64,000 nt of DNA, taken from the NCBI GenBank assembly GCA_039105265.1, contig JAPFFF010000021.1, forward strand, positions 2,108,001 to 2,172,000, in the 5' to 3' direction. Source of the DNA: Tritrichomonas musculus (lineage: Eukaryota > Parabasalia > Tritrichomonadida > Tritrichomonadidae). A program made the translations under genes and the position numbers. The stretch's first letter is position 1. Each line of letters begins with the position of its first letter. Of this stretch, positions 8,361-25,368 are shown one piece after another. The notes under the pieces are model-generated. The model saw nothing but the letters and a program-made list of their open reading frames with translations. It did not search any database and was not told the DNA's origin.

Positions 8361-9884
8361 TTATCCTTTAATGACACCAATTGGTCTAAGCTTAGCGACC
8401 TTTTTAGAAACTCCAACCTTTTGGCAAGCTTCGATAACTTGATCAATATCTTTGTATGATTTAGGAGCTTCTTCAATAATTGTATCTTTGTTTGCTGCCA
8501 TCAATTCGACACCTTTTTGAGAAAGTTCATTTTTAATTTGGCCAACAGTGAGTTCTCTGAGAGCTTTACTTCTTGACATGACTCTTCCTGCACCGTGACA
8601 AGTTGAACCAAAGGAATTATTTACTTCTTCAACAGTACCAACAAGAATATATGATCCTGTTCCCATTGAACCTCCGATAAGAACTGGTTGACCAATTTCT
8701 TTGTATTTGAGTGGTAATTCATCTCTGTCTGGTCCAAATGAACGAGTTGCACCTTTTCTGTGAACAACAAATTCACGTTCAACTCCATCAATGGTATGTC
8801 TTTCGATTTTAGCGATATTGTGTGCAACATCATAAATTAAATCCATTTTAATTTCTTCATTGTTGCTGTTGGTTGTGCCAAAAACTTCAGTAAATGCTTT
8901 ACGTGCAAAGTGAGTAATGATTTGTCTGTTACACCATGCAAAATTGGCAGCAGCTCCCATTGATTGAAGATATCTTTGACCAAGATCGCTGTAAAGTGGT
9001 GCAGCTGATAATTGCTTATCTGGAAGATTTGGATTGAAGCATTTTTGTTCCATTTCTTTAATAAAATCATCTGCTACTTGATGCCCAAGTCCACGAGAAC
9101 CAGTGTGAATCATGCAAACTACTTCGCCTTTCTTGAGACCCATGACTTCAGCAGCCTTGTCATCGTAAATTTCATCAATGTACTGAACTTCTACGTAGTG
9201 GTTTCCTGCACCTAATGTTCCGAGTTGTCCATTACCACGGTCAATAGCTCGATTTGTTATCAATGATGGATTTGCAAATTTGAGGCATCCACCTTCTTCA
9301 CAGTTTTCTAAATCTTCTGGAACACCATATCCGTGCTCAATGGCCCAGCCAGCACCTTTTGAAAGAACTTCTGGAACTTCTTCTTTAGTCATGAAATTTT
9401 TCCTTTTTCCACCAACTCCTGTTGGAATGTTACGATACATTGCTTCAATTAATTCTTTTTTCTTTGCTTCAACTTCTTCGCGTTTCAAATGTGTTGTGAA
9501 GCATCGAACACCACAGTTGATATCATATCCGACACCTCCAGGTGAAATGATGCAGTTTGGATCGCATGTATCAAATGCTGCGACACCTCCAATAGAAAAT
9601 CCGTATCCAGAGTGCATATCAGGCATGCCATATGAGTATTTGGAGATTCCAGGCAATGTTGCAACGTATGCAATTTGCATAATTGAAGGAAGACCTACGT
9701 TTCTGTTTTTTATCCAGTTGTTGAGTTCATCAAAAGCAAGATCAGCCATATCTTTTGTTGCATAAAAGCGGCCAGGAACGCGCATATTAGGAACAAAGCC
9801 AATTGGAATTTCATAAACGCATTCTTCACCTTCTACAAGGTGAATCATAGATGGATCAATTGGGAGAGGATTAGGTTGAGACAT
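8361..9884 (-). CDS. rtcB: RtcB-type tRNA-splicing / RNA ligase
   Basis: This 507-aa protein matches the RtcB (HSPC117) family in length and motifs. It has the MPDMHSGYGFSIGG segment, SPGGVGYDINCGVR with the conserved Cys, GAGNHYVEVQ, MIHTGSRGLGHQV, and VAHNIAKIE containing a metal- or GMP-site histidine region. The C-terminus has GAGRVMSR and ends in the usual LRPIGVIKG. The family joins 2',3'-cyclic phosphate and 5'-OH RNA ends with GTP and Mn2+, as in tRNA exon ligation and RNA repair. No frameshift or missing core motif is seen. The ATG at 9884 is supported by the usual N-terminal length and an initiator-like motif just upstream. Confidence 0.96.
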   Translation of the reverse strand: MSQPNPLPIDPSMIHLVEGEECVYEIPIGFVPNMRVPGRFYATKDMADLAFDELNNWIKNRNVGLPSIMQIAYVATLPGISKYSYGMPDMHSGYGFSIGGVAAFDTCDPNCIISPGGVGYDINCGVRCFTTHLKREEVEAKKKELIEAMYRNIPTGVGGKRKNFMTKEEVPEVLSKGAGWAIEHGYGVPEDLENCEEGGCLKFANPSLITNRAIDRGNGQLGTLGAGNHYVEVQYIDEIYDDKAAEVMGLKKGEVVCMIHTGSRGLGHQVADDFIKEMEQKCFNPNLPDKQLSAAPLYSDLGQRYLQSMGAAANFAWCNRQIITHFARKAFTEVFGTTNSNNEEIKMDLIYDVAHNIAKIERHTIDGVEREFVVHRKGATRSFGPDRDELPLKYKEIGQPVLIGGSMGTGSYILVGTVEEVNNSFGSTCHGAGRVMSRSKALRELTVGQIKNELSQKGVELMAANKDTIIEEAPKSYKDIDQVIEACQKVGVSKKVAKLRPIGVIKG

Positions 9885-9891
9885 TAGATCA

Positions 9892-9896
9892 AATGA
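9892..9896 (-). promoter_or_regulatory. Candidate initiator for rtcB
   Basis: On the minus strand TCATT lies seven bases before the rtcB start codon and matches TCA-Py-(T/A). Confidence 0.35.
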
Positions 9897-10430
9897 TGAT
9901 CAAAAAAACTCAAAAAATTCAATTGGCAGAATTAAAAAAAAATCTCGTTATTGGTAATTTTAAACCATCTATTTTACTGTAAAAAATAAATATATGCTAA
10001 TTTTTCAAATAAAATAAAATAATAAATATTATTTTATTTGTTTATAATTCCTTTTTTAAAATAATAACTGAGAAAATTAGCGGAAAAATATGTTTTATAA
10101 AAACTAATAATAATTGATAGTTATTGATTCAAAACAAAACCAACATCAAAATTGGGAAAAGTATCAATCGAGAAATGTTTAATTGACCTTCCTTTTCTGA
10201 TGCTGCTGATATTAGTTGTAAATTATGGCTTTGAATTTTTAATTTAATAAAATGTTATTGATCAATTTTTATAGTTTTTATTACTGAAAATTTTTTTATT
10301 TTGATAAATATAATGAGTTACACTATATTTTGACCTTAATTTAACGAAATTTCTGAGATATTTGCAATTTAAATTTGTTATTTTAACGATAATATTTTCA
10401 ATTAAAAATTGGCCAGTTAAAAATATTCAG

Positions 10431-10435
10431 TCATA
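10431..10435 (+). promoter_or_regulatory. Candidate initiator for the DUF3447/ankyrin gene
   Basis: TCATA directly abuts the ATG at 10436 and fits TCA-Py-(T/A). If used, the 5' leader would be only a few bases, which is typical for trichomonads. Confidence 0.35.
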
Positions 10436-12746
10436 ATGGAATCTCAGGAACAAATTGAATTGATATCAAAGCTTCAAGATTATTTAATGAATGCTGATGA
10501 AGGAAATCTAGATGAATCAAAAAATTTTATTCTAGAAGAATATTTAATTAAAGGAATTGATTATTATTCACCTTTTTTTCGAACTTATCTAATTGCATTA
10601 ATGTATAGACCATGTGAAACAGAATTATATATTAAATTATTAATAAATTTATATGAAAGTTTTGATAATCAAGAGATGATTTCAAATTTTAATCAAGTAT
10701 TAATTGAGACTGTTTTTCATTTACCAGGGCCACAAATCTCTGGGTTATTTGTTTTATATCGTCTTTATCAATCAGGCCATATAAACATTGACGACATCAT
10801 AAATAAAATTCATTTGTATCGATATGAAAACACTGAAATGAAGATCAATCTAGTTTACTGCTATTTATGGTTTGCTCCTGAGATTAATGACCGCAACGAA
10901 TACTTTTTAAGTTTACTAAGGAGTGATTACGATGAATTTTCAAAAAATAATTCAATTCATTTGTCATTACAAAATTTTTCAATAGATTCAATGACCTCTC
11001 ACAATTTTGAATTACTTCGACACTATAGAAAAAGTGGACACAATCATCGTCGTTTATTTATGATTCTAATGAATGATGATATTGATTCCCTTCAAAATGA
11101 GAATTTGAATCCACTTTTTGATAGCAATTTGACGGTTAATTCATCTTTTTATGAAATTTGTCCATTCATTCAAAATGGGCCGACATTAATTCAAACTGCT
11201 GCTTTCTTTGGATCAATTAAATGTTTCAAATATTTATTATTGAATGGAGCAAATCTTCTCGCTGCTGATAAAGCAAATGAGATGCTTCCGCATTTCGCCG
11301 TTGCTGGCGGAAATGTCGAAATAATTCGAATCTGTCATCAAAGAAAATTGCAGATGATTGGGGCTTCTCAAATTGCGGCACTTTTTCATAGAAATAGTAT
11401 TCTAACGTGGCTGATTGAATGCGAATGTCAAGCAGAAGGTAACGTTGCTCAGAATAACGGAACTATTATTCAAAACGCAGCGGTTACAAATAATTTGAAT
11501 ACAATTGAAATGTGCCTTGAAAAAAAAGTCGACGTAAATGGAGGAAATAAAAAGAAAACTTCTTTACAAAACGCATGTGAAAATGGAAATATCGAATCTG
11601 TTACTCTTCTTTTATCATCTAAAGATATAGATATTAATGCTTGTGTTTTTAAATACTTTATTTTTTTTTAATAGAATTTCAACTTTTTTTTTTTAATTGG
11701 ATTCAACTTTAATTATTTTTTTTTCTTATAATGGAACTGCTTTATTTTTCGCTGTCCAAAATAAATTTATCGATATTGTTAAGCTTCTTTTAAATTTACC
11801 TAATATTGACGTTAATGCAGGAAATTCAATTTCATTAATATATATATATTTAATTACGTTTCATTTTTTTGATTTTTTTATTTTAGATTGGAACACCTAT
11901 TCGTGCTGCTTGTCAAAATGGTGATATTGAAATGCTGCGACTTTTATTGGATAAAGAAGAAACTGATGTGAACTTTCAATGTATTTCAAACAAAAAAATT
12001 TTTTTTATAGGAATGACTCACCTTTATTATGTGCAATTCAAAATAATCATATTGAAATTGTTAAGGAATTGATTCACTGTCAAAAGCATAAGATTGATGT
12101 AAATTTAGATGGAATTTTTAAAAATTAATATTATTCTAATCCTGTTTTTAAATTTATTGTGTTTAATAATGGTTCTCCTCTTTATGTTGCATCCAAAAAT
12201 GGTTTTCATGAAATTGTTCGTTTGCTTCTTTCTGTTCCTGATATCAATGTCAATTATTTAACAAAAGGAATTCACTAAAAAAATAATTTAATGAAATTTG
12301 CTTTAAATTAGTTCTAATTATTCACCTCTTTTCATCGCAGCAATGAATAAGCATCTTAAATGCGTTCGTCTTTTATGTTCTCATGATGAAATACAGATAA
12401 ATGTTCGAAATGTTTTAATATTTTTTATTTTAAAAAAGATGGAATCTACTCATAAAAATCTAATTTAGCTCCACTTCATATTGCAGTTAGAAATCATGAT
12501 CTAAGTATGGTGAAATTTCTTCTTTCATGTGATGGAATTAATATTGAATTGTCTACATATGATGGCTTAAGTCCATATTATATAGCTCAGCGACAATATG
12601 ACTTTCAGATGATGAGTTTACTAAAGCCATATACAAATGAACCACCTGATTTCTATTATAACTATAATTACTATAACAATTATGATGATTACGATGATGA
12701 TGATGATGACGACGACTCCGATGACGATTATTTTTATTTTATGTAA
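10436..12746 (+). pseudogene. DUF3447/ankyrin-repeat gene interrupted between repeats
   Basis: The first 411 codons (10436-11671) read without a stop and resemble the DUF3447-plus-ankyrin proteins expanded in trichomonads, including the FGSIKCFKYLLLNGA ankyrin-like segment. After that, recognisable ankyrin units continue in several frames: NGTALFFAV (about 11731), GTPIRAACQNG (about 11890), NDSPLLCAIQNN (about 12013), NGSPLYVASKNG (about 12168), SPLFIAAMNK (about 12322), APLHIAVRNH (about 12467). The last exon-like piece runs to 12746 and ends in Tyr/Asn- and Asp-rich residues. Six AT-rich insertions of about 38-88 bases, with stops or frame changes, each follow the D-(V/I)-N end of a repeat. 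It may be a decaying gene or one with unusual short introns; no trichomonad GTATGT...ACTAACACACAG intron signal was found. Confidence 0.65.
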
Positions 12747-12888
12747 TTGAAAAGTTTTTTGAATTAATAAAGCTATTCATGATATGCATATTTACTTATT
12801 TTTTTTTTTTTTTTTTTTCAGAATAATATGTTAGAAAAAGATTCTGAAAAATTCCAAAAATAGTAATTTATTTTTTTAAAAAAAATAT

Positions 12889-13599
12889 TTAATTTTCACA
12901 AATACCAACCTTAGCACAGATATCAGAATGCGAAATTTTTCCTTCAACCCAAACTATGATATATTGTAAATATTGTTGTGCTAATGTGTCGCAAAGACTT
13001 GTGTATGGCGATTTATAAGTTCCACAGTGATCCAAAACAAGTGAGTTGATTTGAGATTCAGATGTTTTTTCTGATAATAATTGTTCAACAAGATTGGTAA
13101 TAGCATTACACATTTCACAACCTGTATTTTTGTCATAATCATTCAATGGAAGCTTGATTGGTGAAACAGGAACATACTCGACTTGTTGTGGAATATTATT
13201 ACTTGGTTTTGATGGGTGAGGTCTTCTGGCTTTGCGGGAAAGTTTATTTGCCATTACAGGATCACACAAGTGTAATTTACCGCAAATATCTAAATTATCC
13301 AAACCTTCTTTAATATAACTAATTGCAAGCGGAACAGCAGATTCGGTATAAGCTGCGCAAAGGCTGCTATAAGGTGTTGGCAATTTTTGGCAATATTCAT
13401 CAATCTTCAGAATAATTTCTTCTTCAAGTTTATCGTCTTGAAGTAAATCATCAACCATATCAACAAGATCAAGGCAAGTATTGCAGAATATGGATTGGTC
13501 CTTTAAATTTGCTGGTAACTGGCGCTTAGGGGTGTTGTATCGTGAAGCTGAACGAGGTTTGATTTGGGAAAGAGAAAGTGCTAGTAAAATTGCTAACAT
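12889..13599 (-). CDS. Secreted protein with two saposin B domains
   Basis: This 236-aa protein starts with a short hydrophobic signal peptide (MLAILLALSLSQ) and carries two saposin-type units. Unit one has cysteines 39, 42, 70, 81, 106 and 112. Unit two has 161, 164, 192, 203, 228 and 234. Both show the characteristic C-x2-C start and paired spacing of the three disulfides. The linker (about 113-155) is basic and Pro-rich. Saposin-like proteins bind or perturb lipids; protist relatives include amoebapore-like pore formers and lipid-transfer proteins, and this sequence does not decide between them. It converges with the ankyrin gene on its left. A clear initiator motif is not seen upstream. 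Confidence 0.88.
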   Translation of the reverse strand: MLAILLALSLSQIKPRSASRYNTPKRQLPANLKDQSIFCNTCLDLVDMVDDLLQDDKLEEEIILKIDEYCQKLPTPYSSLCAAYTESAVPLAISYIKEGLDNLDICGKLHLCDPVMANKLSRKARRPHPSKPSNNIPQQVEYVPVSPIKLPLNDYDKNTGCEMCNAITNLVEQLLSEKTSESQINSLVLDHCGTYKSPYTSLCDTLAQQYLQYIIVWVEGKISHSDICAKVGICEN

Positions 13600-14100
13600 T
13601 TTTTAACAAATTATTTTTTTTTTAAAAAACTCAGAAAAATTTTATCGCTTGAACTGACCTTTCAAAATCATTTAAAAAATTGATATATAAAATCATTAGC
13701 CCTCAATTAAAGAATCAGAGATATCTTAATATTGAAAAAATAAACAAATGAAATTATTAAACATTACATTCAAACACAGAAAATATATAATATTTTTTAT
13801 ATTTTAAAAATGAAAATCAAAATATTTTTTTCATTTTAATAAAAGGGTTCGACCTTTGGCGGTTATCAAATTTTAAAATAATAAAAAATTAATAATAAAA
13901 AATATTGGCATTATCAATAACATGATGCAATTTTAAATATGAAGCCGATTCTATTAGCCAAAATAGAGATATTTCACTAAAAAAAATAAAAACAGAAAAA
14001 GTTTAACTTTTGATATGGAAAATATTTTTGAGTTATTATCTAATTTCCACCATTCAAAGAGATTTTGGGAATTTGTAAATATCCAATTATATAAATATTT

Positions 14101-15063
14101 TAGAACATAGGAAACTCTCATAATCTTTTGAAATTAATATATAATAAAGTATATCATATTATAAGAATATTTTAATAGAAAACATTTTCCTAATTTTGCG
14201 TATATACTGAGATATGATTAAAGAAAGTTGCCAAAATTGAGAGGAATTTCTATTCAAATGTAGTATAATTTTGTAATTGATTTTTCTCGAAAATTTGACG
14301 GACGATTTTTCTAAAAATTTAATATAATATATAATGCAATGTATACTACTATTTAAGATAAATGTAATATACAGGTCATTCGTTGGCTCTGTTCTGGAAT
14401 CGTTTTTTCCAAAAAAAATCGTAAAATCGGCTAAAAATAGTGTAAATCGCTTTATCTCGGGATATATACTTATAATGCGCAATTTTTTTGCTTAATCGTG
14501 TTTTTAACATCATAATAAGACAAATAACCAATTTTTGGGTAAAAATATTGAATTTTGGCCGATATTGTTAGTAACGAGTTTTTTTGTATTTTTATCTTAA
14601 TATAAAAAATCTCATTCTTCACGGATAGGAGTTTTTGGTTATTACTCTATATACAATAAACATACAATCCTATAATTTTATAATCATATACAATACAGTA
14701 ATGCAATTATTGTTATACTGATTATGTAGGTACACCTATTTTTTTTTCTGACATTTAATGCAAAAATACAGAAATCAAATTTTTGAAATATATTTTATAA
14801 ATAACTCGATGCAAAGCGAAGCTAATAAAAATATAACAATTGATATATATTAAGATGCTTGCAATATATATTCTTATAATACCATAAATTTTGAAACATT
14901 TTTACATTTACGTCTGGAGACTCGTTATGAAAATCACAACTTTTTGAAAGACTCTCCGCCGCGATTTCGCTTAAAATCTGAAATCATCAATAACTATCTA
15001 TGGTGAGTATATATTATTAATTTCGAAGCATATCGACATATCTCGAGAGTTTCCTATGTTCTA
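14101..15063 (+). repeat. Left 963-bp terminal direct repeat
   Basis: This copy is identical to 17200-18162 at a constant offset of 3099 bases except for A at 14298. It has perfect 19-bp inverted repeats at its own two ends, so it could move as a unit by itself. It lies downstream of the transposase-like gene. The minus-strand open frame inside it lacks an ATG and is not called. Confidence 0.93.
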
Positions 15064-15142
15064 TATTTTTTTAAAATTTTTGACATATCATAAAATATTC
15101 AAATATTTCTATATATAAAAAGTGAAATGAAAAAATTATCTT

Positions 15143-17119
15143 TTATTCAGAATCATCATCATTAACCAAGTTATTCAACTGCTCATCAGCATTCCAAAAT
15201 ATCATGTTGTTCAAGCCAGCTGTTTTTATCATGCCCGTTGATTTGGTAGAAATTGAACGTCGATTTTTTTCATAAAAATTCCCCAAAATCCCACTTAACT
15301 CTTGAAATGGCATTTTTCTTGGCTTTGGATCGATTAACTTCAATAATGGCATTTTTCTTACAATTTGAACATTCTTCCAAAGGTACAATGCTTGCCGAAG
15401 ATAGTAAATTATTGGACGTTCTTCAACTGGAGTGTTGTCAAAAATTTTCTTCCCACTGTCACTTCGTGATTCTGGAACTTTTTCTTCAATAGGCATGTTC
15501 TTGTACAATTCGTGCTCCAATAGAATGTATTTCATTGATTTCTGGAAATTCACGTGGCTGTCATCTTTTTTATTATGCCTCCGAACATTTGCAAAATTGT
15601 GTTCTTGGTAGTGTGAACTGCATGCACCTGTATCAATAGCTTCTTCAGTGATTATTTGAGATGCAATTCCAATTGCAGTAAATATGTATTGTTTACACCA
15701 ATTATCTGTGAAACATCTCATTTTCTTATAGGTATTGGGCTGCACACGATAGATTTTTAAGTTGTGTTCAATGACATATTGTTGCATAAGATAATAAATC
15801 AATACAATACTTGCACCAAGTAAAAGATAGTCAATAGTCTCTTGCCGACTTAGTGAATTCCTGAATAGTGCCTCTAGTAAGAGTGTAGAAGGAAGCATTG
15901 ATAAAAGTAAATAAAAGTCTTCGTCATCAATTATTTTTTGAATTGTTTGTAAAGTAAACAATTTTTTTGGGAGGTCATCTTCCATTTTGCGTCCTTTGTT
16001 GTTATCCAATAAGTAAGGAGCAATTCCAATAGTTTTTAAATCTTCTGCAGACCGTGTTTCATAAGAATCATATGGAGAAACTAGGAATTCTTCAAGAGAG
16101 GATTTTCTGTAACGATCTCTTTTTGTCAGGTGCAATGGATCTGAAAAATGAATTAATACTGCAAATATTTTAATTATACCAACAGCACCAAGACTTAGGA
16201 ATCTTTCGAAGTTACCAATAATTTTGTCGATGAATATATTTGCATATATGCTATAAGTGTTGTCACCATCAGTGCCTAATCCGATAATACTTATGTTTTT
16301 TGGCATGAGTGATATGATCGATTCAATTTTTTCGCGTAACTCTTGTGTTGCCTTACCTGACGTCGACGGAATACATGCAATTGGAAACTGTTTAAATTCT
16401 GGATTTAATGGTGCAAATGTCATACCGAATTCTGCTTGTATCACTGAGTTATAATTTAATTTAATAAATTCTAAAAATTCGTTGTCATCATTAATAAATG
16501 TTTCTGCTAATTCTGGATCGATCTCTTTGAGATTTAGCACGCCATCAATCCTACCATTTTTATTTACTTTGACATACGGTGTAACATATGCAGCATCAAC
16601 CATGATAACTCCTTTTCCAGTAAAATTATTTGGTAAAAACCTTGACATGATATTCAAAATATTTTGTATATCGCCATTAAAAATGTCGTCATGTATTCCT
16701 AAATTAGCGAGAGCTTGCTTTCTATATGTTGAAGCAGTTTTATATGTTGGAAACAATAAATTGGTATTTAAAATATTGAAGTAATGTGGACTCATCATGC
16801 TTAACAGTGCAAAGAATTCGTGAAGTCCATCATAACGTCTTCCTTGAGGAAATTTTGTTATATTATCCCATGTAGCGCCGATGAATCTTAATACTATTGG
16901 ACTAATATTAATCGTTTTTTGTTTGTCTTCTGGTATATTCAATTTAATTTTCTGTAAGTCTGCTATTTGTCTTTTTAGCCTTGTATTCTCCAAAATTAAC
17001 CTTTCATTTTCACCTTGTAATCTTTGATTGTCTTCTAAGAGCTTTTCGTAAGTTTGCTGAGATCTTGCTTTTGCTCCTGTTTCGGGAGTAAACCATGATG
17101 GATTTCGCTTAGGCGCCAT
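15143..17119 (-). CDS. Transposase-like protein of the 4.06-kb element
   Basis: The 658-aa protein begins with a basic stretch and a coiled coil (about 20-60, leucine/asparagine heptads). The centre looks like an RNase H-like transposase core: VIMVDAAYVTPYVKV with Asp175, then IIGLGTDGDNTYS with Asp284/Asp286, and DPLHLTKRDRYR at 327-338, reminiscent of the D-x-x-H-L-x-K-x-x-R segment of P/hAT-like enzymes. A long helical insertion follows, then HYQEHNFANVRRHNKK with Glu506 as a candidate last acidic residue. The frame is intact. The gene occupies nearly all the interior between the repeats, with the right repeat as the probable promoter side. Family placement is inference; the protein could be an unrelated passenger, but the nucleic-acid-enzyme look and position favour transposase. 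Confidence 0.7.
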   Translation of the reverse strand: MAPKRNPSWFTPETGAKARSQQTYEKLLEDNQRLQGENERLILENTRLKRQIADLQKIKLNIPEDKQKTINISPIVLRFIGATWDNITKFPQGRRYDGLHEFFALLSMMSPHYFNILNTNLLFPTYKTASTYRKQALANLGIHDDIFNGDIQNILNIMSRFLPNNFTGKGVIMVDAAYVTPYVKVNKNGRIDGVLNLKEIDPELAETFINDDNEFLEFIKLNYNSVIQAEFGMTFAPLNPEFKQFPIACIPSTSGKATQELREKIESIISLMPKNISIIGLGTDGDNTYSIYANIFIDKIIGNFERFLSLGAVGIIKIFAVLIHFSDPLHLTKRDRYRKSSLEEFLVSPYDSYETRSAEDLKTIGIAPYLLDNNKGRKMEDDLPKKLFTLQTIQKIIDDEDFYLLLSMLPSTLLLEALFRNSLSRQETIDYLLLGASIVLIYYLMQQYVIEHNLKIYRVQPNTYKKMRCFTDNWCKQYIFTAIGIASQIITEEAIDTGACSSHYQEHNFANVRRHNKKDDSHVNFQKSMKYILLEHELYKNMPIEEKVPESRSDSGKKIFDNTPVEERPIIYYLRQALYLWKNVQIVRKMPLLKLIDPKPRKMPFQELSGILGNFYEKNRRSISTKSTGMIKTAGLNNMIFWNADEQLNNLVNDDDSE

Positions 17120-17127
17120 TAAAAAAA

Positions 17128-17132
17128 AATGA
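17128..17132 (-). promoter_or_regulatory. Candidate initiator for the transposase-like gene
   Basis: On the minus strand TCATT lies eight bases upstream of the start codon, outside the terminal repeat, and matches TCA-Py-(T/A). This suggests the element carries a host-type initiator. Confidence 0.35.
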
Positions 17133-17199
17133 TTCTATATTGAAAATTTCAGAGGTTTTTAAATTTGAAAGGAAAAAAAAGCATGACCACGAAAAATTA

Positions 17200-18162
17200 T
17201 AGAACATAGGAAACTCTCATAATCTTTTGAAATTAATATATAATAAAGTATATCATATTATAAGAATATTTTAATAGAAAACATTTTCCTAATTTTGCGT
17301 ATATACTGAGATATGATTAAAGAAAGTTGCCAAAATTGAGAGGAATTTCTATTCAAATGTAGTATAATTTTGTAATTGATTTTTCTCGAAAATTTGGCGG
17401 ACGATTTTTCTAAAAATTTAATATAATATATAATGCAATGTATACTACTATTTAAGATAAATGTAATATACAGGTCATTCGTTGGCTCTGTTCTGGAATC
17501 GTTTTTTCCAAAAAAAATCGTAAAATCGGCTAAAAATAGTGTAAATCGCTTTATCTCGGGATATATACTTATAATGCGCAATTTTTTTGCTTAATCGTGT
17601 TTTTAACATCATAATAAGACAAATAACCAATTTTTGGGTAAAAATATTGAATTTTGGCCGATATTGTTAGTAACGAGTTTTTTTGTATTTTTATCTTAAT
17701 ATAAAAAATCTCATTCTTCACGGATAGGAGTTTTTGGTTATTACTCTATATACAATAAACATACAATCCTATAATTTTATAATCATATACAATACAGTAA
17801 TGCAATTATTGTTATACTGATTATGTAGGTACACCTATTTTTTTTTCTGACATTTAATGCAAAAATACAGAAATCAAATTTTTGAAATATATTTTATAAA
17901 TAACTCGATGCAAAGCGAAGCTAATAAAAATATAACAATTGATATATATTAAGATGCTTGCAATATATATTCTTATAATACCATAAATTTTGAAACATTT
18001 TTACATTTACGTCTGGAGACTCGTTATGAAAATCACAACTTTTTGAAAGACTCTCCGCCGCGATTTCGCTTAAAATCTGAAATCATCAATAACTATCTAT
18101 GGTGAGTATATATTATTAATTTCGAAGCATATCGACATATCTCGAGAGTTTCCTATGTTCTA
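17200..18162 (+). repeat. Right 963-bp terminal direct repeat
   Basis: This is the second copy of the terminal repeat, again bounded by TAGAACATAGGAAACTCTC and its reverse complement. Its left flank (AATTA) does not repeat on its right side, whereas the right flank TATTT matches the left flank of the first copy. The two copies therefore moved as one element. Confidence 0.93.
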
Positions 18163-18844
18163 TATTTTGTAACATTTATGTCATATATTCTTTTTTTACA
18201 ATTTTATTTACATCTTTTAAATCAATTAAAAAGTAATTAATTAAATATCATGTAAGATAAATTTATTTATGAAAAATAAAATTGAATTAATACGTTATTA
18301 TAATTAATTCTCAATTGTGATATACATATAAACTGAGTAAAAATGTAAATTAATCTTTTATAATAATATATATATAATTTATATTATATATAATAAATAT
18401 ATAATCATTAATATGATGATATAACTAATATATTATCCAAATAATAAGTATTTGTTAATAAATATAATATATTTTCAAAATTCTGATATTATCAAAATAA
18501 ATTTTTCAAAAACTAGTGTTTTATTCAATTATTAATTCAAAATTTTTATTTATAAAAAACAATAATTTCTTGAATATCAATAATATAATTTGTTAAAAAT
18601 TATTATTATATTTCAAGTAATATATAAATAATGTAAATAATAAATCATTTAAGAAAAAGCCTCAAATATCATAATAAAAACACTTATTTTAATGATTTAT
18701 GGAATAAATAACAAATTTTTTGTTTTTTAAGATATATTAAATGAATATAGATTTTATCAGATATTGATTTAAGAATTTATTAAATAGAAAGAATATTTAA
18801 TTTTTAAGATATTATTTTTTTTCAATCAAAAAAAATTTGAGAGA
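18163..18844. other. AT-rich interior of the outer element
   Basis: This stretch is the right remainder of the outer inverted-repeat element. It is almost entirely A and T and has no open frame of note. Confidence 0.5.
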
Positions 18845-18883
18845 GTCGAACCCTTTTATTTTAATGTTCATAAACGTTTTCTT

Positions 18884-19784
18884 AGAGGTGAGACTGCGAA
18901 ATTTTAAATGAACTTTTTTAGGAATAATAATTAACAAAATTAAAAATAAATTAAAAATATAGTATCATGGTGTTGTTATCTTTTTATATCATATACTTTT
19001 TTCAGATTTAATCAAAAAAAATTGAAATTGTATTGATATTTCAAAATGTCATAATTCATATATTCGTCATTATTTTTTCTTTTCAACCATCAAATTGCAT
19101 TTGTATATAGATGATCTCTATTTTTTAATAAGAAAGCTATTCAATAAATGCGTTTTTGGTCAAAATTCAAAAAATATTTTTCAATTTAAAGAGAAATTTT
19201 CTTCTATATTAAAGACCAAAGGGATAACTATAGTTTATCTTTTAACTTATCTGGTGCTGGCAAACATATCAAAATATTTTTTAAATTTTTTTTACAATTT
19301 TAGCTAGGATTGAGGTTTAATATTGAATATAATTCTATATACGTTAATGATGTAAACTTCACAAATATCTAAATAATTTCATTTGTTTTTATTTTGGTAT
19401 CAACGTCACAATAAGTATTTATTTTAATATTTATCAATAATTTACTAAAAAATCATGCTTTTAATATGATGATAGTTAGTTAAATCATAAAAAATCATTA
19501 TTTGATTTATAATTCTCAGTCGGAAATTTTAATATTATATTTTAATCTATATATTAAATATTGATAATTAAATTATTTATTATTTTGAGTAAATAGAATT
19601 TTTTTATTAAGATAAAATTGAAATTATAATATGATATAAATAATTCAATTTTAAAAATAGATATATAGCTAAATATCTGAAAAAAATATTAGTGAAATTA
19701 TCATAAATAGCATTTAATTCTTTAATAAGATAATATGTATTAATATTATTAAAAAATACCAAAAATTTTCGCAGCCTCACCTCT
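18884..19784. mobile_element. 901-bp miniature element, hAT-like ends
   Basis: The left end AGAGGTGAGACTGCGAAATTTT (18884-18905) is matched inversely at 19762-19784 with one substitution and one extra base. Exactly eight bases, GTTTTCTT, are duplicated on both sides (18876-18883 and 19785-19792). The 8-bp duplication and AGAGG-type end fit hAT-derived miniature elements. The interior is AT-rich; a 70-codon plus-strand frame at 19095-19307 resembles nothing known, so the element is probably non-autonomous. Confidence 0.75.
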
Positions 19785-19792
19785 GTTTTCTT

Positions 19793-20242
19793 ACATGTAA
19801 TTTCTTTTCCACTTTAAATAAGATAAGCAAATGATATTGTGGGAATATCATCAAATGAAATATTATAAATTTCCTTCAAAAAGGCGAATACATAATTTTC
19901 GAAATTGAAACTTTTTAATCTTTAGATTTTATAGTTTCTGACTTTTTGTAAAAAATATTGAATTATTCAATTTGTTTGTTTTGCAGTTTGCCATTCTCAA
20001 AGGATGCTTAAGCGTATTCGAGAATCGGTAGATAAAGCTAGTAATATTTTTTTTTTTTTTTTTTAAAATAAATAAATAAAGAAAAAATTATATATAATTT
20101 TTTAAAAATAAAAACATGAGTTTCATTAAATTATCTATAAATTTATCATGAAGATTTGTATTCGATTACAAATATCGCTTTTGATAATCAAGAAGCCTAA
20201 TTAAAATCATATAAAAATGCTGAATTAAAATTAGTTATAAAC
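19793..20242. other. AT-rich intergenic spacer
   Basis: No gene is supported. A short stem, TGATATT...AATATCA, occurs near 19830-19850, and a less AT-rich patch lies at about 19983-20040 without a clear product. Confidence 0.4.
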
Positions 20243-21364
20243 TTAAGCAAGAAGTGGTTTGTTGAAATTTTTGGCTTCATATTCAGGAACTGTTTCGGTA
20301 TCATCTTTTTGAACAGATACCAGAGATGCTAATGAATCATCACGCCTTATTGAACCTAATGATTGGCGATCGCCCAAAAATCCGCAAACAATAGCCAATG
20401 TTAAGATAACAAGACCAAAAGCACTCAATACATAGTCTTTTGTTAAATAAGTATCCCATTCGTGGAAGAAAAAGACACCAATTAAAACACCGATTACTAT
20501 TTGACCAAAATTGGAGAAGCTTGAAATAACAGCTCCTAGCTTTTTAACAGTCCATAAATATACATATGTACATCCACAAGTATGAACAGCGCCTAAGATT
20601 AAAGGCCAAGTAATTCCTATTAATGTTGATGCTCTTACTTTTGAGATAAAAACTTCAGGGCTGTCATAGCAAATAGCAAACGTCACTGAATAGATAGCAG
20701 ATGCGAAAAGTTGAAAGAGGCCGCATAATGTTGGTTCAACATCTGACAAATGTGATTTCATGTAAACAGAGCCAAATCCAAAAGATGCAATAGCAACTGC
20801 TACAAAAATATAATCAATTACCTTTGCTTTTACACCATAACTTGAGTCTTGGGTTGGAATTGTAGTCAAAATTGTTCCTATAAGAGCAAGAACTTGAGGA
20901 TAGAATCTTTTGAAAGAAAATTTTTCATCTGCAAGCATGAAGTTTGCAAATATAAACGCAAAAAAAGGAACGCAAGACTGAGCTATGTGAACTGTATTTG
21001 ATGGGATTGAGCGTTGAGCAACACCAATAAGCGAATGAGGAAAGCCATAATACATAATTCCACCGAATGCAGATTTTAACATATGCATTTTGTGGTGCTT
21101 AAGAGATTCCTGAATGTTTAATCGCGTTTTAACTTCAAAAATCATTCTGAAAATAAAAATGATAAGAGAAGAAGCAAATGCAAAGATCATCCTTAATGCA
21201 GTAAGGGTCGCTCCAGGATATCCAGCTTGCAAACCTAAAATTGCTATTCCATACGATGTTCCATATAAAAAGCATAAAGCAATAAAGCCCATTATTGCTG
21301 AGAAACGTTCACAGCATTGCTTTATTTTTGAACTACTTTGACTTGAGGCATCATCTATATACAT
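20243..21364 (-). CDS. EamA/DMT-superfamily membrane transporter
   Basis: The 373-aa protein (ATG at 21364) has about ten hydrophobic segments in two halves, the pattern of drug/metabolite transporters of the EamA type. Typical features are the GTSYGIAILGLQAGYPGATLTALR start of half one, the IAQSCVPFFAFIFANFMLADE helix pair, and the GVLIGVFFFHEW segment near the end. N- and C-termini are polar and probably cytosolic; the tail contains Ser/Asp-rich possible phosphorylation sites. Members export or import small metabolites or nucleotide sugars; the substrate cannot be told here. Six more bases upstream are open only with a TTG, so the ATG is preferred. Confidence 0.85.
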   Translation of the reverse strand: MYIDDASSQSSSKIKQCCERFSAIMGFIALCFLYGTSYGIAILGLQAGYPGATLTALRMIFAFASSLIIFIFRMIFEVKTRLNIQESLKHHKMHMLKSAFGGIMYYGFPHSLIGVAQRSIPSNTVHIAQSCVPFFAFIFANFMLADEKFSFKRFYPQVLALIGTILTTIPTQDSSYGVKAKVIDYIFVAVAIASFGFGSVYMKSHLSDVEPTLCGLFQLFASAIYSVTFAICYDSPEVFISKVRASTLIGITWPLILGAVHTCGCTYVYLWTVKKLGAVISSFSNFGQIVIGVLIGVFFFHEWDTYLTKDYVLSAFGLVILTLAIVCGFLGDRQSLGSIRRDDSLASLVSVQKDDTETVPEYEAKNFNKPLLA

Positions 21365-22883
21365 TACCAAAAAATATATAATAAGTGTTTAATCTCAAAT
21401 TGAATGATGAGTTAACTGAGTTATGAATTTTGAATAGCAATAAAAATAAATCATCAAAATTGAAACACTTTATAAATAATTGTTTCATTAATAAATACCA
21501 ATGTATATTTGATATTATTGAACTATTTCATATTTATAATATTTCCATATATTGATTAATCATTGAATCCAACATTTATGTACCATTTTACATTTTTAAT
21601 ATTAAAATGCTGCTTCAAAAACTTATCAAATAAAAACTAAAATAATAACTAAAATAATCAATTCAAATTTCTATTAAAACAATCATTGAAAATTGAAATA
21701 AATATAATCTTTATCGTTTATGGGTTTCCAGCTAAAGTTATATTCATTTCTATTCTTTATTGAATAAAAAAAGGTTTTTTTTAAATTATTTTATTTCGTT
21801 TTTCAATTAATTGGAGTTAACCTGTAATTGAATTGTTTTGAAATAATACGAATCTGAAAATTTCAGATTCAGATTGAATAATAGATTTAAAAAAATAGTC
21901 GCAAATACACAGATTTTATTTATAAAGATTAAAGCAAATTCACAAAGTAATCTACTATAATATATTTGGCTTGGTGAGTTTTGAATCACAATTTTAATAA
22001 ATTGCAATTTATATAAACGTCTTCAAAGATTTGTTTATTTTCGAAATTATTTTTATTGGTACTTAACGTCGATCTTTGGATGGTTTGTACAGAATAATAT
22101 ACTTTATTACTTAATTTTTTTTTGAAATGTTAGATATAATTATAATTATAATTCCATTTTTAGCTGCTTAAATGCTTTTTGATATATATGATTCTATATA
22201 TATGCTTTTTTTTTTTCCAAGAAAATTCATTTTTAGCTCATATTTCATCATTCGAAGAGACAAATAATTCGCCAAATTGTTATTATTATTTTGGAATAAA
22301 GGTCCTAAAAGCAATATGAATTGTTGAAAAATAATCATTTTTTTATTTATTAATTAATAAAGAAAGAACTCACTTAAACTCAAACTGTCTCTTTTTTTAT
22401 GGTGAAACAAACCAAAATTATTAAATAAATAATTTATCCAAGATTCATAAATCTTATTAAATATTTCATATTTAACCTATAGTCCATAGCGTCTATATCA
22501 AAATAACAAATTGTAATTTGTGATCTGAATATATATATATATATATATATAGATATCAATCATTTTTAAAAGAATCATGTTGAACAAAATGTCTCCAATT
22601 AGACACTTAACATCAAAAAATTAATATTTCAATAGTTTATTTTCCCAGTTACGATCATAAATTGGTCAATTAAAAATTAATTCATTGAATTATTTCTTTC
22701 GATCTTCAAACAATTATTTTTTAAAGAATGAATTAAAAAAGAGTATATTCATAAAATTAATCGAGATAAATAAACAAATATCAAAAAACTCTGATATTAT
22801 AAAATAAATAATTAATTTTTATTGAGATATAAATCTTTTTTATTTTTAATTCAATTCTAACGATTTACTAACTCTATTTTTCA
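21365..22883. other. Long AT-rich intergenic region
   Basis: About 1.5 kb without a supported gene. It contains an (AT)n microsatellite at about 22528-22551 and scattered poly(T) runs. A 66-codon minus frame at 21807-22007 has no recognisable similarity and is not called. Confidence 0.5.
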
Positions 22884-23459
22884 ATGGTTATCGATGAAGT
22901 GTACGATGAAAAAGTTAACTTTTTCAATATTTCCAGAAATCAAAAAGTGGCATTAATCGAAAGTAAATTTGGTATTATGGCAGACGCACAATGGAAAGAG
23001 CTTGAAACTGAAATGAGGTCATTCTTCCAAGAATTCGATGTTAAGAATACAGGTCAACTCGGACTCGAAGAAATAACAGCAATTTTGAAATCAGTTGGAC
23101 TTCGTTGCACAACTGAAGAAGTTCGTGAAATGATGAGCGAAGTTGCAGGACCTAATGCCACAACAATTCCATTTGAAAAGTTAATGGAAATTTTACAACG
23201 TCACACCCATCAAGAAGATGAAGAAGAAACAATTCGCCAAGCATTTGCTACAATCGATGTTGACGGTGATGGTTTAATTTCAGCAACCGACTTACAATGC
23301 TTCATGCAAAGCTTAGGCGAAGATTTTGATATAAAATATGCTGAAAGAATGCTTAAAGCTGCAACAGGAAATAAGCAAACGCCAGTAGATTTTGAACATT
23401 ATAAACAAACCCTTCATAACAAATGGGCCGATCCCTCTGCAGCTGCAAATCAAGAGTGA
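22884..23459 (+). CDS. EF-hand calcium-binding protein (calmodulin/centrin-like)
   Basis: The frame encodes up to 191 aa. Residues 32-191 form a four-helix-pair calmodulin/centrin-like protein. One EF-hand loop is canonical, DVDGDGLISATD at 125-136. The first loop (52-63, starting DVKNTG) is divergent and the others are degenerate. Thus probably one strong calcium site remains. The first 31 residues look unlike the family, so translation may begin at the internal ATG at 22977 to give 160 aa; the upstream ATG at 22884 is kept because the frame is open. Role is probably calcium-dependent regulation, perhaps cytoskeletal; partner unknown. Confidence 0.85.
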   Translation: MVIDEVYDEKVNFFNISRNQKVALIESKFGIMADAQWKELETEMRSFFQEFDVKNTGQLGLEEITAILKSVGLRCTTEEVREMMSEVAGPNATTIPFEKLMEILQRHTHQEDEEETIRQAFATIDVDGDGLISATDLQCFMQSLGEDFDIKYAERMLKAATGNKQTPVDFEHYKQTLHNKWADPSAAANQE

Positions 23460-23728
23460 TTTTATTTCTTTTGTAAAACACATTTTTTTTTATTTACTAT
23501 CATTTTTTTTGAATTCATATTTGTCTCAATAAAAAAGAGTGAAAAAAAAGTAGAAACATGGGATTATATTTTGTATCTTTATTATGCTGGTATTATATAT
23601 TAGGGTTAACAACATACGCATACAAAAAAAGTTATAACTTTCAATTATGCAAATTCATTCGTTAAATAAATGGTATTCTATTCAAAAGAATCCATTTCAT
23701 CTTATATAATATACATACAATTTTAGAG

Positions 23729-24925
23729 TTAAGGTTCCACACTGAAATCAATTTTATCATCATCTCCATCAAGCCAAATTAATGCTTTGGGTTCTATTTT
23801 CATTTTTGGTCTTTGACTGGATTCAAGATTTTGAATTGCTTGCTGAAGGCTTTCCTTCTGGATATAAAGCTCATATTCTCCTTTACCCTTTGAAACGCAT
23901 TTTAATTCTCGTAATACATCAATTATATCATCTCTTGAAATTGATGTAAGCTTAACAAGCTCATCCAATGTACTCACATCACGCCAATGATTCTTTAAGG
24001 TTTCAACAAGAGTGTCTCTCCAGTAAGCATGAAATGCAATTTTACCTAAATCACTCAAAGGTCTCTCTGGTCCACCACTCCGATGTTGCCTTTTAGCAAT
24101 TTCATATGAAAGTGAGATTAATAAACGGCCATAACCTCTTTTTTGATATGGAGGCAAAGCAACGATACATGCAAGAACATTTCCTTCTTCGCTGTAGATT
24201 TCACGAGAAAAATAAGCAGCAACATGAGCTCCTTTCTCATCACATTCGCAGAGAACATAAAAAAGAAATCCTTCAACATCATAAAAGAGAGTCTTATGAT
24301 CAAGGAATAACTTTGCGAGTAGGCATAAGCATTGGCAAGCTATTTTTTGTTTACATCCATGTAGCTCAAAAATGCTTATATTATCTTTTCTATAGATTTC
24401 TCGGCCAGGTGGGCGTTGTTCTTGCGTTGTTTGAAGATGTTCATCGAGTTGCTGTTGAGTTGAAAAATATTGGCAGCAATGATCACAAATGTAAAGATGT
24501 GGAGCTTCATAGAATGGATGTGGGTATGGAGAAAAATACCATGTTCGCATTGTAAAATTACTGATTGTAATCTGTTCGATATTTCTAATCTTTGTAACTT
24601 CGCGATGAAGTTGTTCAAATTTAAGAACTTCAGCTGATAATTGCTCATCATCAGAAGCATTATGCATTCTTTCATGATCTCTTCGTGATAGAACATGTGC
24701 TGGTGCAGCAGGCTGTGAAATACTAATATAAGGTTTTAATTGCGAAATTGGAATCCATCGATCTAGTCTTTTATCTTCATGTTCAAAGTGAACATATGCT
24801 TTATTATCTCGAAAAATAACAATCACTGCTTCTCGTTCTTCATCATATTCATCACAATAAACTGAGACATGATCATTGATTTTATATTGGGAATTTTCTG
24901 AATCGTCTGCTGATTCTTGAGACAT
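23729..24925 (-). CDS. MYST-family histone acetyltransferase (Esa1/Tip60-like)
   Basis: The 398-aa protein (ATG at 24925) has an N-terminal chromo/tudor-knot domain (about 15-67, ending in RLDRWIPISQLKP) and a MYST catalytic domain. The zinc-finger region has YICDHC and a following His, but the usual last Cys appears to be Thr. The family autoacetylation segment LFLDHKTLFYD is present, and catalytic residues are Cys253 in the LACIVALPPYQ segment and Glu287 in GGPERPLSDLG. The acetyl-CoA-binding QKRGYGRLL is intact. Such enzymes acetylate histone H4 and other proteins as part of NuA4-type complexes in the nucleus. Length is close to the yeast Esa1 type. Confidence 0.93.
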   Translation of the reverse strand: MSQESADDSENSQYKINDHVSVYCDEYDEEREAVIVIFRDNKAYVHFEHEDKRLDRWIPISQLKPYISISQPAAPAHVLSRRDHERMHNASDDEQLSAEVLKFEQLHREVTKIRNIEQITISNFTMRTWYFSPYPHPFYEAPHLYICDHCCQYFSTQQQLDEHLQTTQEQRPPGREIYRKDNISIFELHGCKQKIACQCLCLLAKLFLDHKTLFYDVEGFLFYVLCECDEKGAHVAAYFSREIYSEEGNVLACIVALPPYQKRGYGRLLISLSYEIAKRQHRSGGPERPLSDLGKIAFHAYWRDTLVETLKNHWRDVSTLDELVKLTSISRDDIIDVLRELKCVSKGKGEYELYIQKESLQQAIQNLESSQRPKMKIEPKALIWLDGDDDKIDFSVEP

Positions 24926-25368
24926 CAAGAGACGTTTTATATAAAATCATAGGAACTTTTTAAAAAGTTTATTGACCATTTAAATAATTTAAAACGTCAT
25001 TAAAATTTTTAATTTAAAATAATATATATATTATATATATATATGTATGTATATGAAGCATATTTTGATCGTTGGCATGTAGTCTTAATGATTACTTTTA
25101 TAGATTTGCTGTGGTGATATTTATCATTTATAAAAAAGTTAAATTCTTTCAAGTTTCTACAAATTTGAATTTTCTTATTGAAGACTCAATAGCAAATTTA
25201 ATATTTGTAATTCAAAACAATAAATTATAATTTTAATCTAGATTTTTAGGTTTATAAAATTGTTAGAGAAATCATCGTCATCAACCTTTTTCAGTAGGTT
25301 AGAACAATTATATTCTTAAAATTGATGAAATAAACAAGATCGTTTACAATTTATTTCCTCAAATTTTA
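24926..25368. other. AT-rich divergent intergenic region
   Basis: The region separates the divergent MYST and coiled-coil genes. It contains an AT-dinucleotide microsatellite at about 25020-25050 and no supported gene. Confidence 0.45.

What the first reader, a model, noticed from the sequence alone, without database searches (positions are those of the whole stretch)
14096..18167. Cut-and-paste-like transposon with 963-bp terminal direct repeats that are themselves inverted-repeat units
Seen directly: two 963-bp direct copies differing at one observed position, each bounded by the same perfect 19-bp inverted repeats, flank a single 658-codon gene; the whole is flanked by TATTT on both sides, while the inner boundaries are not. 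LTR retrotransposons have direct terminal repeats but need reverse transcriptase, and no such gene is present. Classical DNA transposons have inverted, not kilobase-long direct, ends. This combination could be a new architecture in which either the whole or one terminal unit can move, leaving solo copies, much like bacterial composite elements but with the enzyme in the middle.
Basis: partly seen in the sequence, partly recalled or inferred. Interest (0 to 1): 0.88.

Follow-up and report, generated by a model that had tools for sequence, protein, structure and literature searches.

The report
Transposon with TIR-bounded long direct repeats
A mouse-gut protist genome carries a recently active jumping gene whose two ends are nearly identical 1-kb blocks, giving it the layout of a retrovirus-like element although it has no reverse transcriptase, a layout known from one group of animal transposons.

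Summary
The feature is real. Window 14102-18161 is a 4,060-bp DNA transposon, unit-gene-unit (UGU), inserted with a 7-bp target duplication (ATATTTT, not 5 bp) into a 950-bp MITE; two fetched MITE copies show the unbroken site. The genome matches Tritrichomonas musculus (longest contig 11,419,247 bp in both). Solo U, UGU and (UG)nU arrays (nine gene matches in a row on one contig) occur. At 25 of 27 insertion sites examined, 18-bp inverted repeats are flanked by exact 7-bp duplications (9 solo, 15 UGU, 1 (UG)3U). The 67 gene copies scored, the best of 509 candidates, are intact. Within an element the Us are almost identical (215 of 218 cells concordant) while elements differ, so Us are homogenised. 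Relatives at 94% and 35% identity assemble as 3.10-3.13-kb circles with a similar 1-kb unit. The architecture is not new: KolobokP transposons of animals have it. This family differs in host group, duplication length, lack of a nuclease gene and an unassigned protein. I read it as a separate parabasalid lineage of composite-like DNA transposon. Excision of single units is not supported. A change of array number is supported by one contig pair; a single-U circle is possible but unproven.

The parts
14095..14101 (.). left target-site duplication ATATTTT
18162..18168 (.). right target-site duplication ATATTTT
17201..18161 (+). right terminal direct-repeat unit U
14102..14119 (+). outer left 18-bp terminal inverted repeat AGAACATAGGAAACTCTC
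15045..15062 (-). inner inverted repeat closing the left unit
   Evidence: read directly
17201..17218 (+). inner inverted repeat opening the right unit
   Evidence: read directly
18144..18161 (-). outer right 18-bp terminal inverted repeat
15064..17199 (.). middle segment G with the single gene
15143..17119 (-). 658-aa transposase-like protein: N-terminal coiled coil, conserved D175, D284, D286, D327, E506; no Pfam or PDB family
   Evidence: 67 of 67 scored genomic copies without stops, of 509 candidates
13841..14101 (+). left part of the interrupted host MITE (its own 8-bp duplication ATTTTAAT at 13833-13840)
18162..18857 (+). right part of the interrupted host MITE (ATTTTAAT follows at 18858-18865)

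Best explanation
A composite-like DNA transposon, (UG)nU with n = 0, 1, 2, 3 or more, of a parabasalid protist. Shown: the mobile entity is bounded by the outermost 18-bp inverted repeats and lies between exact 7-bp duplications for n = 0, 1 and 3. Inferred: the 658-aa protein is its DDE-type transposase, which pairs two outward ends and pastes the element in. Supported by one contig pair and suggested by a second: the number of UG repeats changes after insertion. Inferred: this is homologous recombination between Us (unequal exchange, loss to a solo U, perhaps pop-out of a UG circle and its re-entry), and the same process keeps all Us of an element alike. U is a noncoding, constrained block carrying the ends and probably the transposase binding sites.
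For: Seven-bp duplications at 25 of 27 sites: 9 solo U, 15 UGU, 1 (UG)3U (misses C463 and C3, whose end is truncated). Unbroken paralogous sites: two fetched host-MITE copies match the joined flanks across the junction at 99.1% and 97.1%, and 27 of the 38 other listed left-flank matches have a right-flank match that abuts them. Contig C535 has the left flank of the window (8,238 bp, 100%), (UG)3U in place of UGU, and the private A at U position 198 in its left-most U only. Us within an element differ at 5 of 21,816 compared positions over 28 pairs; the best-covered Us of different multi-U loci differ by 0.67% on average over 165 pairs, 32 of them without a difference; 215 of 218 element-site cells concordant. 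Arrays of 9 (C65), 7 (C327) and 6 (C513) gene matches at 3,099-bp spacing. Relatives L106, L107, L108 close as circles of 3,100, 3,120 and 3,126 bp with units of 964, 990 and 990 bp. dN/dS 0.245 against L106; U divergence 47/963 lies below synonymous 42/399 (Fisher p 2.5e-4).
Against: The circles of the relatives could equally be tandem arrays or UGU insertions collapsed by the assembler. C535 and C449 also miss 198 and 117 bp of flank next to the array, so their array change may have come with another event. The genome paper found k-mers consistent with a haploid by GenomeScope but a diploid by Smudgeplot (passages), so C535 may be a second haplotype, a population variant or an assembly error. 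Two sites lack the duplication (C463; C3).
Confidence: 0.8

Rival explanations
1. A non-autonomous LTR retrotransposon (LARD-like): the units are LTRs and an RT from elsewhere copies the element.
For: Unit-gene-unit layout, solo units with duplications, near-identical units within an element.
Against: No RT or integrase domain in the gene. Ends are AGAAC...GTTCT, not the TG...CA usual for LTRs (recalled). The 7-bp duplication is outside the 3-6 bp that PMC10045372 gives for LTR elements (passage). I saw no convincing tRNA primer site by eye at the start of the middle segment. [quoted passage not shown]
Confidence: 0.05
2. The unit U is itself an independent mobile element moved in trans by the transposase, and UGU behaves like a bacterial-style composite of two Us.
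For: Each U has both inverted repeats; nine solo U insertions with 7-bp duplications; KolobokP LTDRs are reported as excisable (PMC9587614 passages).
Against: No G right end without a U in the genome (0 matches; left ends not searched, and the pattern misses ends with A as second next base). Of six solo copies compared, five carry 1-4 private changes against none in most Us of full elements, as expected for older insertions; the sixth (L049) matches a current subfamily exactly, which fits either origin. The unit has no enzyme-sized ORF.
Confidence: 0.25
3. An autonomously replicating 3.1-kb DNA circle that integrates now and then; the genomic arrays are its footprints.
For: Three relatives close as circles; in the protein table 15 of 26 proteins have a longest contig of 3,035-3,295 bp, that of the window-identical protein being 3,129 = 3,099 + 30.
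Against: Nearly all insertions examined end at the outer inverted repeats with a duplication (25 of 27 sites), so integration is end-specific, not a single crossover of a circle. Arrays and collapsed direct repeats also give circular assemblies. No replication domain found in the one gene.
Confidence: 0.1
4. Two independent solo insertions beside an unrelated host gene, or an assembly artefact.
For: The left unit happens to be flanked by ATATTTT on both sides.
Against: The unit-gene-unit block recurs at 15 sites with duplications, gene copies recur intact, and in the copies compared G type goes with U type.
Confidence: 0.01

Closest known systems
KolobokP DNA transposons of animals (Kojima & Bao 2022, PMC9587614; abstract, sections 5, 9, 15 and passages seen)
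   Same: Middle region between two long terminal direct repeats that carry their own 11-18 bp inverted repeats; 5'-RR...YY-3' ends; solo repeats and (LTDR-INT)n-LTDR multimers with target duplications; transposase in the middle.
   Different: KolobokP was reported from seven animal phyla, with LTDRs of about 450 or 660 bp, solo LTDRs mainly with 3-5 bp duplications, in most families a second gene for a His-Me nuclease, and leftovers lacking one LTDR. Here: parabasalid host, units 961-990 bp, 7-bp duplications, one gene, no G right end without U found. Homology of the transposases was not tested (no KolobokP sequence at hand).
P element / THAP9 superfamily (PMC7776569, passages seen)
   Same: N-terminal coiled coil; acidic residues spaced roughly like a split RNase H domain with a long insertion (second D to E 222 residues here, 228 in P).
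   Different: No THAP hit for the window protein, 7-bp instead of 8-bp duplication, no P-element Pfam hit; first to second D 109 against 73 residues.
LTR retrotransposons and solo LTRs
   Same: Direct terminal repeats, near-identical within a copy; solo repeats.
   Different: No RT, different end letters, 7-bp duplication, long tandem arrays.
Bacterial composite transposons / translocatable units (recalled, and as discussed in PMC9587614)
   Same: Two directly repeated, inverted-repeat-bounded units around a gene.
   Different: The enzyme gene is in the middle, not in the units.

Membership tests
KolobokP | LTDR-INT-LTDR with inverted repeats on each LTDR, solos and multimers | tested here: met
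KolobokP | target duplication of 3-5 bp (as reported for solo LTDRs) | tested here: not met
   7 bp at 25 of 27 sites
KolobokP | His-Me finger nuclease gene | tested here: not met
   no second ATG ORF over 61 aa in the middle segment; the paper notes that some KolobokP families appear to lack it too
KolobokP | Kolobok-type DDD/E transposase | not tested
   no Kolobok sequence was at hand; no Pfam transposase match
P element / THAP9 | THAP zinc finger at the N-terminus | tested here: not met
   no THAP among the six Pfam hits at E up to 1 for the window protein; nor among the 25 of 82 families shown for the 27 alignment members
P element / THAP9 | 8-bp target duplication | tested here: not met
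   7 bp
P element / THAP9 | split RNase H fold with GTP-binding insertion | not testable with these tools
   structure prediction switched off
LTR retrotransposon | reverse transcriptase | tested here: not met
   single ORF without RT domain
cut-and-paste DNA transposon (general) | terminal inverted repeats with fixed-length target duplication | tested here: met
cut-and-paste DNA transposon (general) | DDE/D catalytic triad | tested here: inconclusive
   D284 and D286 invariant, D175 and E506 nearly so in alignment A1 of 27 sequences; activity and fold untested

The most novel reading that the evidence does not exclude
A separate superfamily of eukaryotic DNA transposon, spread through gut protists of rodents and ruminants, whose cycle obligatorily passes through a single-U state (a 3.1-kb UG circle or array), so that both terminal repeats are rebuilt from one template at each round: the logic of LTRs reached without reverse transcription.
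Probability: 0.3. Interest if true: 0.75.

Novelty: new variant of a known kind. Interest (0 to 1): 0.52.

Why it matters
It suggests that the composite-like layout described for KolobokP is not limited to that animal lineage: a differently behaving family (7-bp duplication, one gene, no nuclease) has it in a parabasalid protist. Because many copies are nearly identical and intact and appear to vary in unit number at one site, it makes testable how a DNA transposon keeps kilobase direct repeats identical without reverse transcription, and whether arrays and circles are by-products or part of the cycle. KolobokP multimers were tentatively ascribed to cleavage by an encoded homing endonuclease; a family without such a gene that still forms arrays of nine argues that one is not required, at least here.

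Tried and rejected
Telomeric repeat: arrays lie at the starts of contigs C4, C9, C12, C14, C20 and C27, but their polarity is mixed and C4 also has an internal array, so they look like assembly breaks in long arrays. Five-bp duplication: replaced by 7 bp once the 19th base proved variable. A flank deletion of 199 and 115 bp in C535 and C449, first estimated, was recounted as 198 and 117 bp. Viral-contig search: 75 stretches matched a pattern, none encodes a relative. Family assignment: Pfam for the whole protein, for the 27 alignment members (25 of 82 families shown) and for coiled-coil-free pieces of three members showed no transposase family; PDB sequence searches gave one sub-threshold hit and coiled coils. 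Papers: no description of this element was seen in the listings of searches; the T. musculus genome paper has no word beginning with transpos in its main text. That is not proof that it is unpublished.
Full report
What is there. The window contains two 963-bp direct copies around a 2,136-bp middle segment with one 658-codon gene on the minus strand. The genome has 193,395,805 bases in 746 contigs.

Ends and target duplication. The 19-bp inverted repeat is found 397 times exactly (202 + 195), its inner 18 bases 455 times (226 + 229). At outer ends the 19th base varies, so the repeat is 18 bp. With that boundary, 26 of the 28 rows with both ends have an exact 7-bp duplication; a 29th row (C3) could not be read because one end is truncated. 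Three rows are second copies of the site of another row: C517 of C1, C449 of C43 and C535 of the window. Folding them, and adding a solo on C13, gives 25 of 27 sites, the misses being C463 and C3. Control: 25 of 27 own pairs match over 7 bp against 7 of 702 cross pairs (C517 and the added C13 solo not in that count). The 25 sites comprise 9 solo U, 15 UGU and one (UG)3U. For UGU at C20:1643154, C28:544834, C43 and C56, and for the solos at C28:1829722, C23 and C13:2808136, the inside was inferred wholly or partly from end spacing; at several others the outer part of a U was not fetched. Not counted: degraded loci with one recognisable end (C1:2019934, C1:2978982, C1:2422385, C2:9606196, C4:5866769, C8:873937, C13:3585606, C20:1503089, C62), arrays running off contig ends, and loci beyond the listed matches, which were not examined.

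Empty site. The element interrupts a 950-bp MITE (13841-14101 and 18162-18857) with its own 8-bp duplication ATTTTAAT. The left-flank search lists 40 matches, the window itself and C535 among them; 27 of the other 38 have a right-flank match that abuts them with a 5-base overlap (40 candidates scored in each, so unpaired ones may only be unscored). Two fetched copies read straight through the site with one ATATTTT and match the joined flanks over 953 bp at 99.1% and over 956 bp at 97.1%.

Arrays and alternative forms. The protein search scored 67 of 509 candidates, the best ones; all 67 are full length at 100% without stops. Spacing of 3,099 bp gives nine gene matches in a row on C65, seven on C327 and six on C513. 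Internally deleted units also exist (L060, L061, L063, L064). Contig C535 is an alternative form of the window locus: its left flank is identical over 8,238 bp, its right flank matches the window exactly from 18360 on, so that 198 bp next to the element are missing, and it holds (UG)3U. Its left-most U shares with the left U of the window the A at position 198, while its other three Us have G. C449 (spacing of UGUGU) and C43 (spacing of UGU) share their right flank; C449 lacks 117 bp of left flank next to the array, with AAT at both break points, and the new junction still reads AATTAAT. So array length appears to change after insertion, in both pairs together with a flank deletion that I cannot explain. 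Whether these are second haplotypes, population variants or assembly products is open: the genome paper reports k-mers consistent with a haploid by one program and a diploid by another.

Homogenised units. Sequenced copies fall into about four subfamilies in which U type and G type go together (my grouping). Within an element, Us differ at 5 of 21,816 compared positions over 28 pairs. Of 218 element-site cells with at least two Us covered, 215 agree; the three exceptions are position 198 in the window and in C535, and position 854 in C517. That call was given 26 loci, seven of them single-U; the arrays of C4 and C9 and loci L053, L062 and L064 were not given. The best-covered Us of different loci differ by 0.76% on average over 291 pairs with solos and by 0.67% over 165 pairs without them, 32 of these pairs showing no difference. 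Subfamily changes therefore reached every U of an element, which simple cut-and-paste inheritance would not do. Gene conversion, unequal exchange or a single-U intermediate all fit.

Solo units. Six solo U copies were compared (L036, L038, L045, L048, L049, L051; L048 over 567 bp): five have 1-4 private changes and one, L049, matches subfamily B exactly; a truncated copy, L052, has 18. No intact right end of G without U was found (0 matches; the left end was not searched, and the pattern misses cases with A as second next base). I therefore favour recombination over excision of units, unlike what is reported for some KolobokP families.

Relatives. The protein search returned 26 proteins at 36-100% identity, 15 with a longest contig of 3,035-3,295 bp, 10 with a shorter and one with a longer one; the profile search added three fragments. 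Three contigs filed under bacterial bins encode relatives: L106 (94% identity, Lachnospiraceae bin), L107 (35%, sheep colon) and L108 (35%, goat colon). Their ends overlap by 55, 141 and 141 bp, giving circles of 3,100, 3,120 and 3,126 bp. The unit in L106 is 964 bp and those in L107 and L108 are 990 bp, with imperfect inverted repeats (13 of 20 and 12 of 20 positions alike) beginning AGAAC or AGAGC; the frame in L107 is broken. Between the window gene and L106, dS is 0.113 and dN 0.028 (ratio 0.245); U differs at 47 of 963 sites against 42 of 399 synonymous sites (Fisher p 2.5e-4). Both gene and unit thus look constrained.

The protein. It has an N-terminal coiled coil; D284, D286, D327 and H330 are invariant and D175 and E506 nearly so in 27 sequences. 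The order (aspartate before a hairpin-like stretch, TDGD, HFSDPxHLxKRDRYR, long insertion, EHxFxxVRRH) reminds me, from recall, of P-element-like RNase H transposases, but no library supports it. It is filed as an unassigned, probable DDE transposase.

Comparison. KolobokP (PMC9587614; abstract, sections 5, 9, 15 and passages seen) has the same layout, solos and multimers. The present family differs in duplication length (7 against 3-5 bp), host group, number of genes, unit length and, as far as searched, leftovers. It works like KolobokP; it is not filed as KolobokP. One search for the words KolobokP and LTDR listed 20 of 111 papers; only that one holds the word KolobokP among those listed. 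IS481EU, a parabasalid family, has duplications of about 4, 15 or 25 bp (PMC10045372, passages) and so differs.

Verdict. It is a recently active, well-documented new variant of composite-like DNA transposon, of moderate interest.

Noticed in passing
window 13841-14101 and 18162-18857: A 950-bp MITE with inverted repeats AAAAGGGTTCGA and 8-bp duplications (ATTTTAAT here, AACGTAAC in L111), with at least 27 unbroken copies among the listed matches; it hosts the insertion.
   Followed up: partly
C535 against window; C449 against C43: The two forms with longer arrays both lack flank next to the array: 198 bp on the right and 117 bp on the left. In C449 the new junction still reads AATTAAT, the duplication sequence, through an AAT shared by both break points.
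   Followed up: partly
L117 (C4:5866720-5866840): An old U right end followed after two bases (GC) by another, altered U left end: abutted inverted repeats, like a circle junction or a lost middle segment.
   Followed up: no
L106, L107, L108: Probable protist transposon contigs filed as contigs of bacterial genome bins (Lachnospiraceae, Clostridia, Bacterium): likely binning contamination.
   Followed up: partly
starts of contigs C4, C9, C12, C14, C20, C27: Arrays sit at contig starts in mixed polarity; in the listed part (first 100 places each) none sits at the far end of a contig.
   Followed up: no
L060 (C12), L061 (C14), L063 and L064 (C20): Units with internal deletions of G or U lie in arrays near contig starts beside intact units.
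   Followed up: no
window 8361-24928: Ordinary neighbours: RtcB ligase and a MYST acetyltransferase; also saposin-like, EamA, EF-hand and ankyrin proteins.
   Followed up: no
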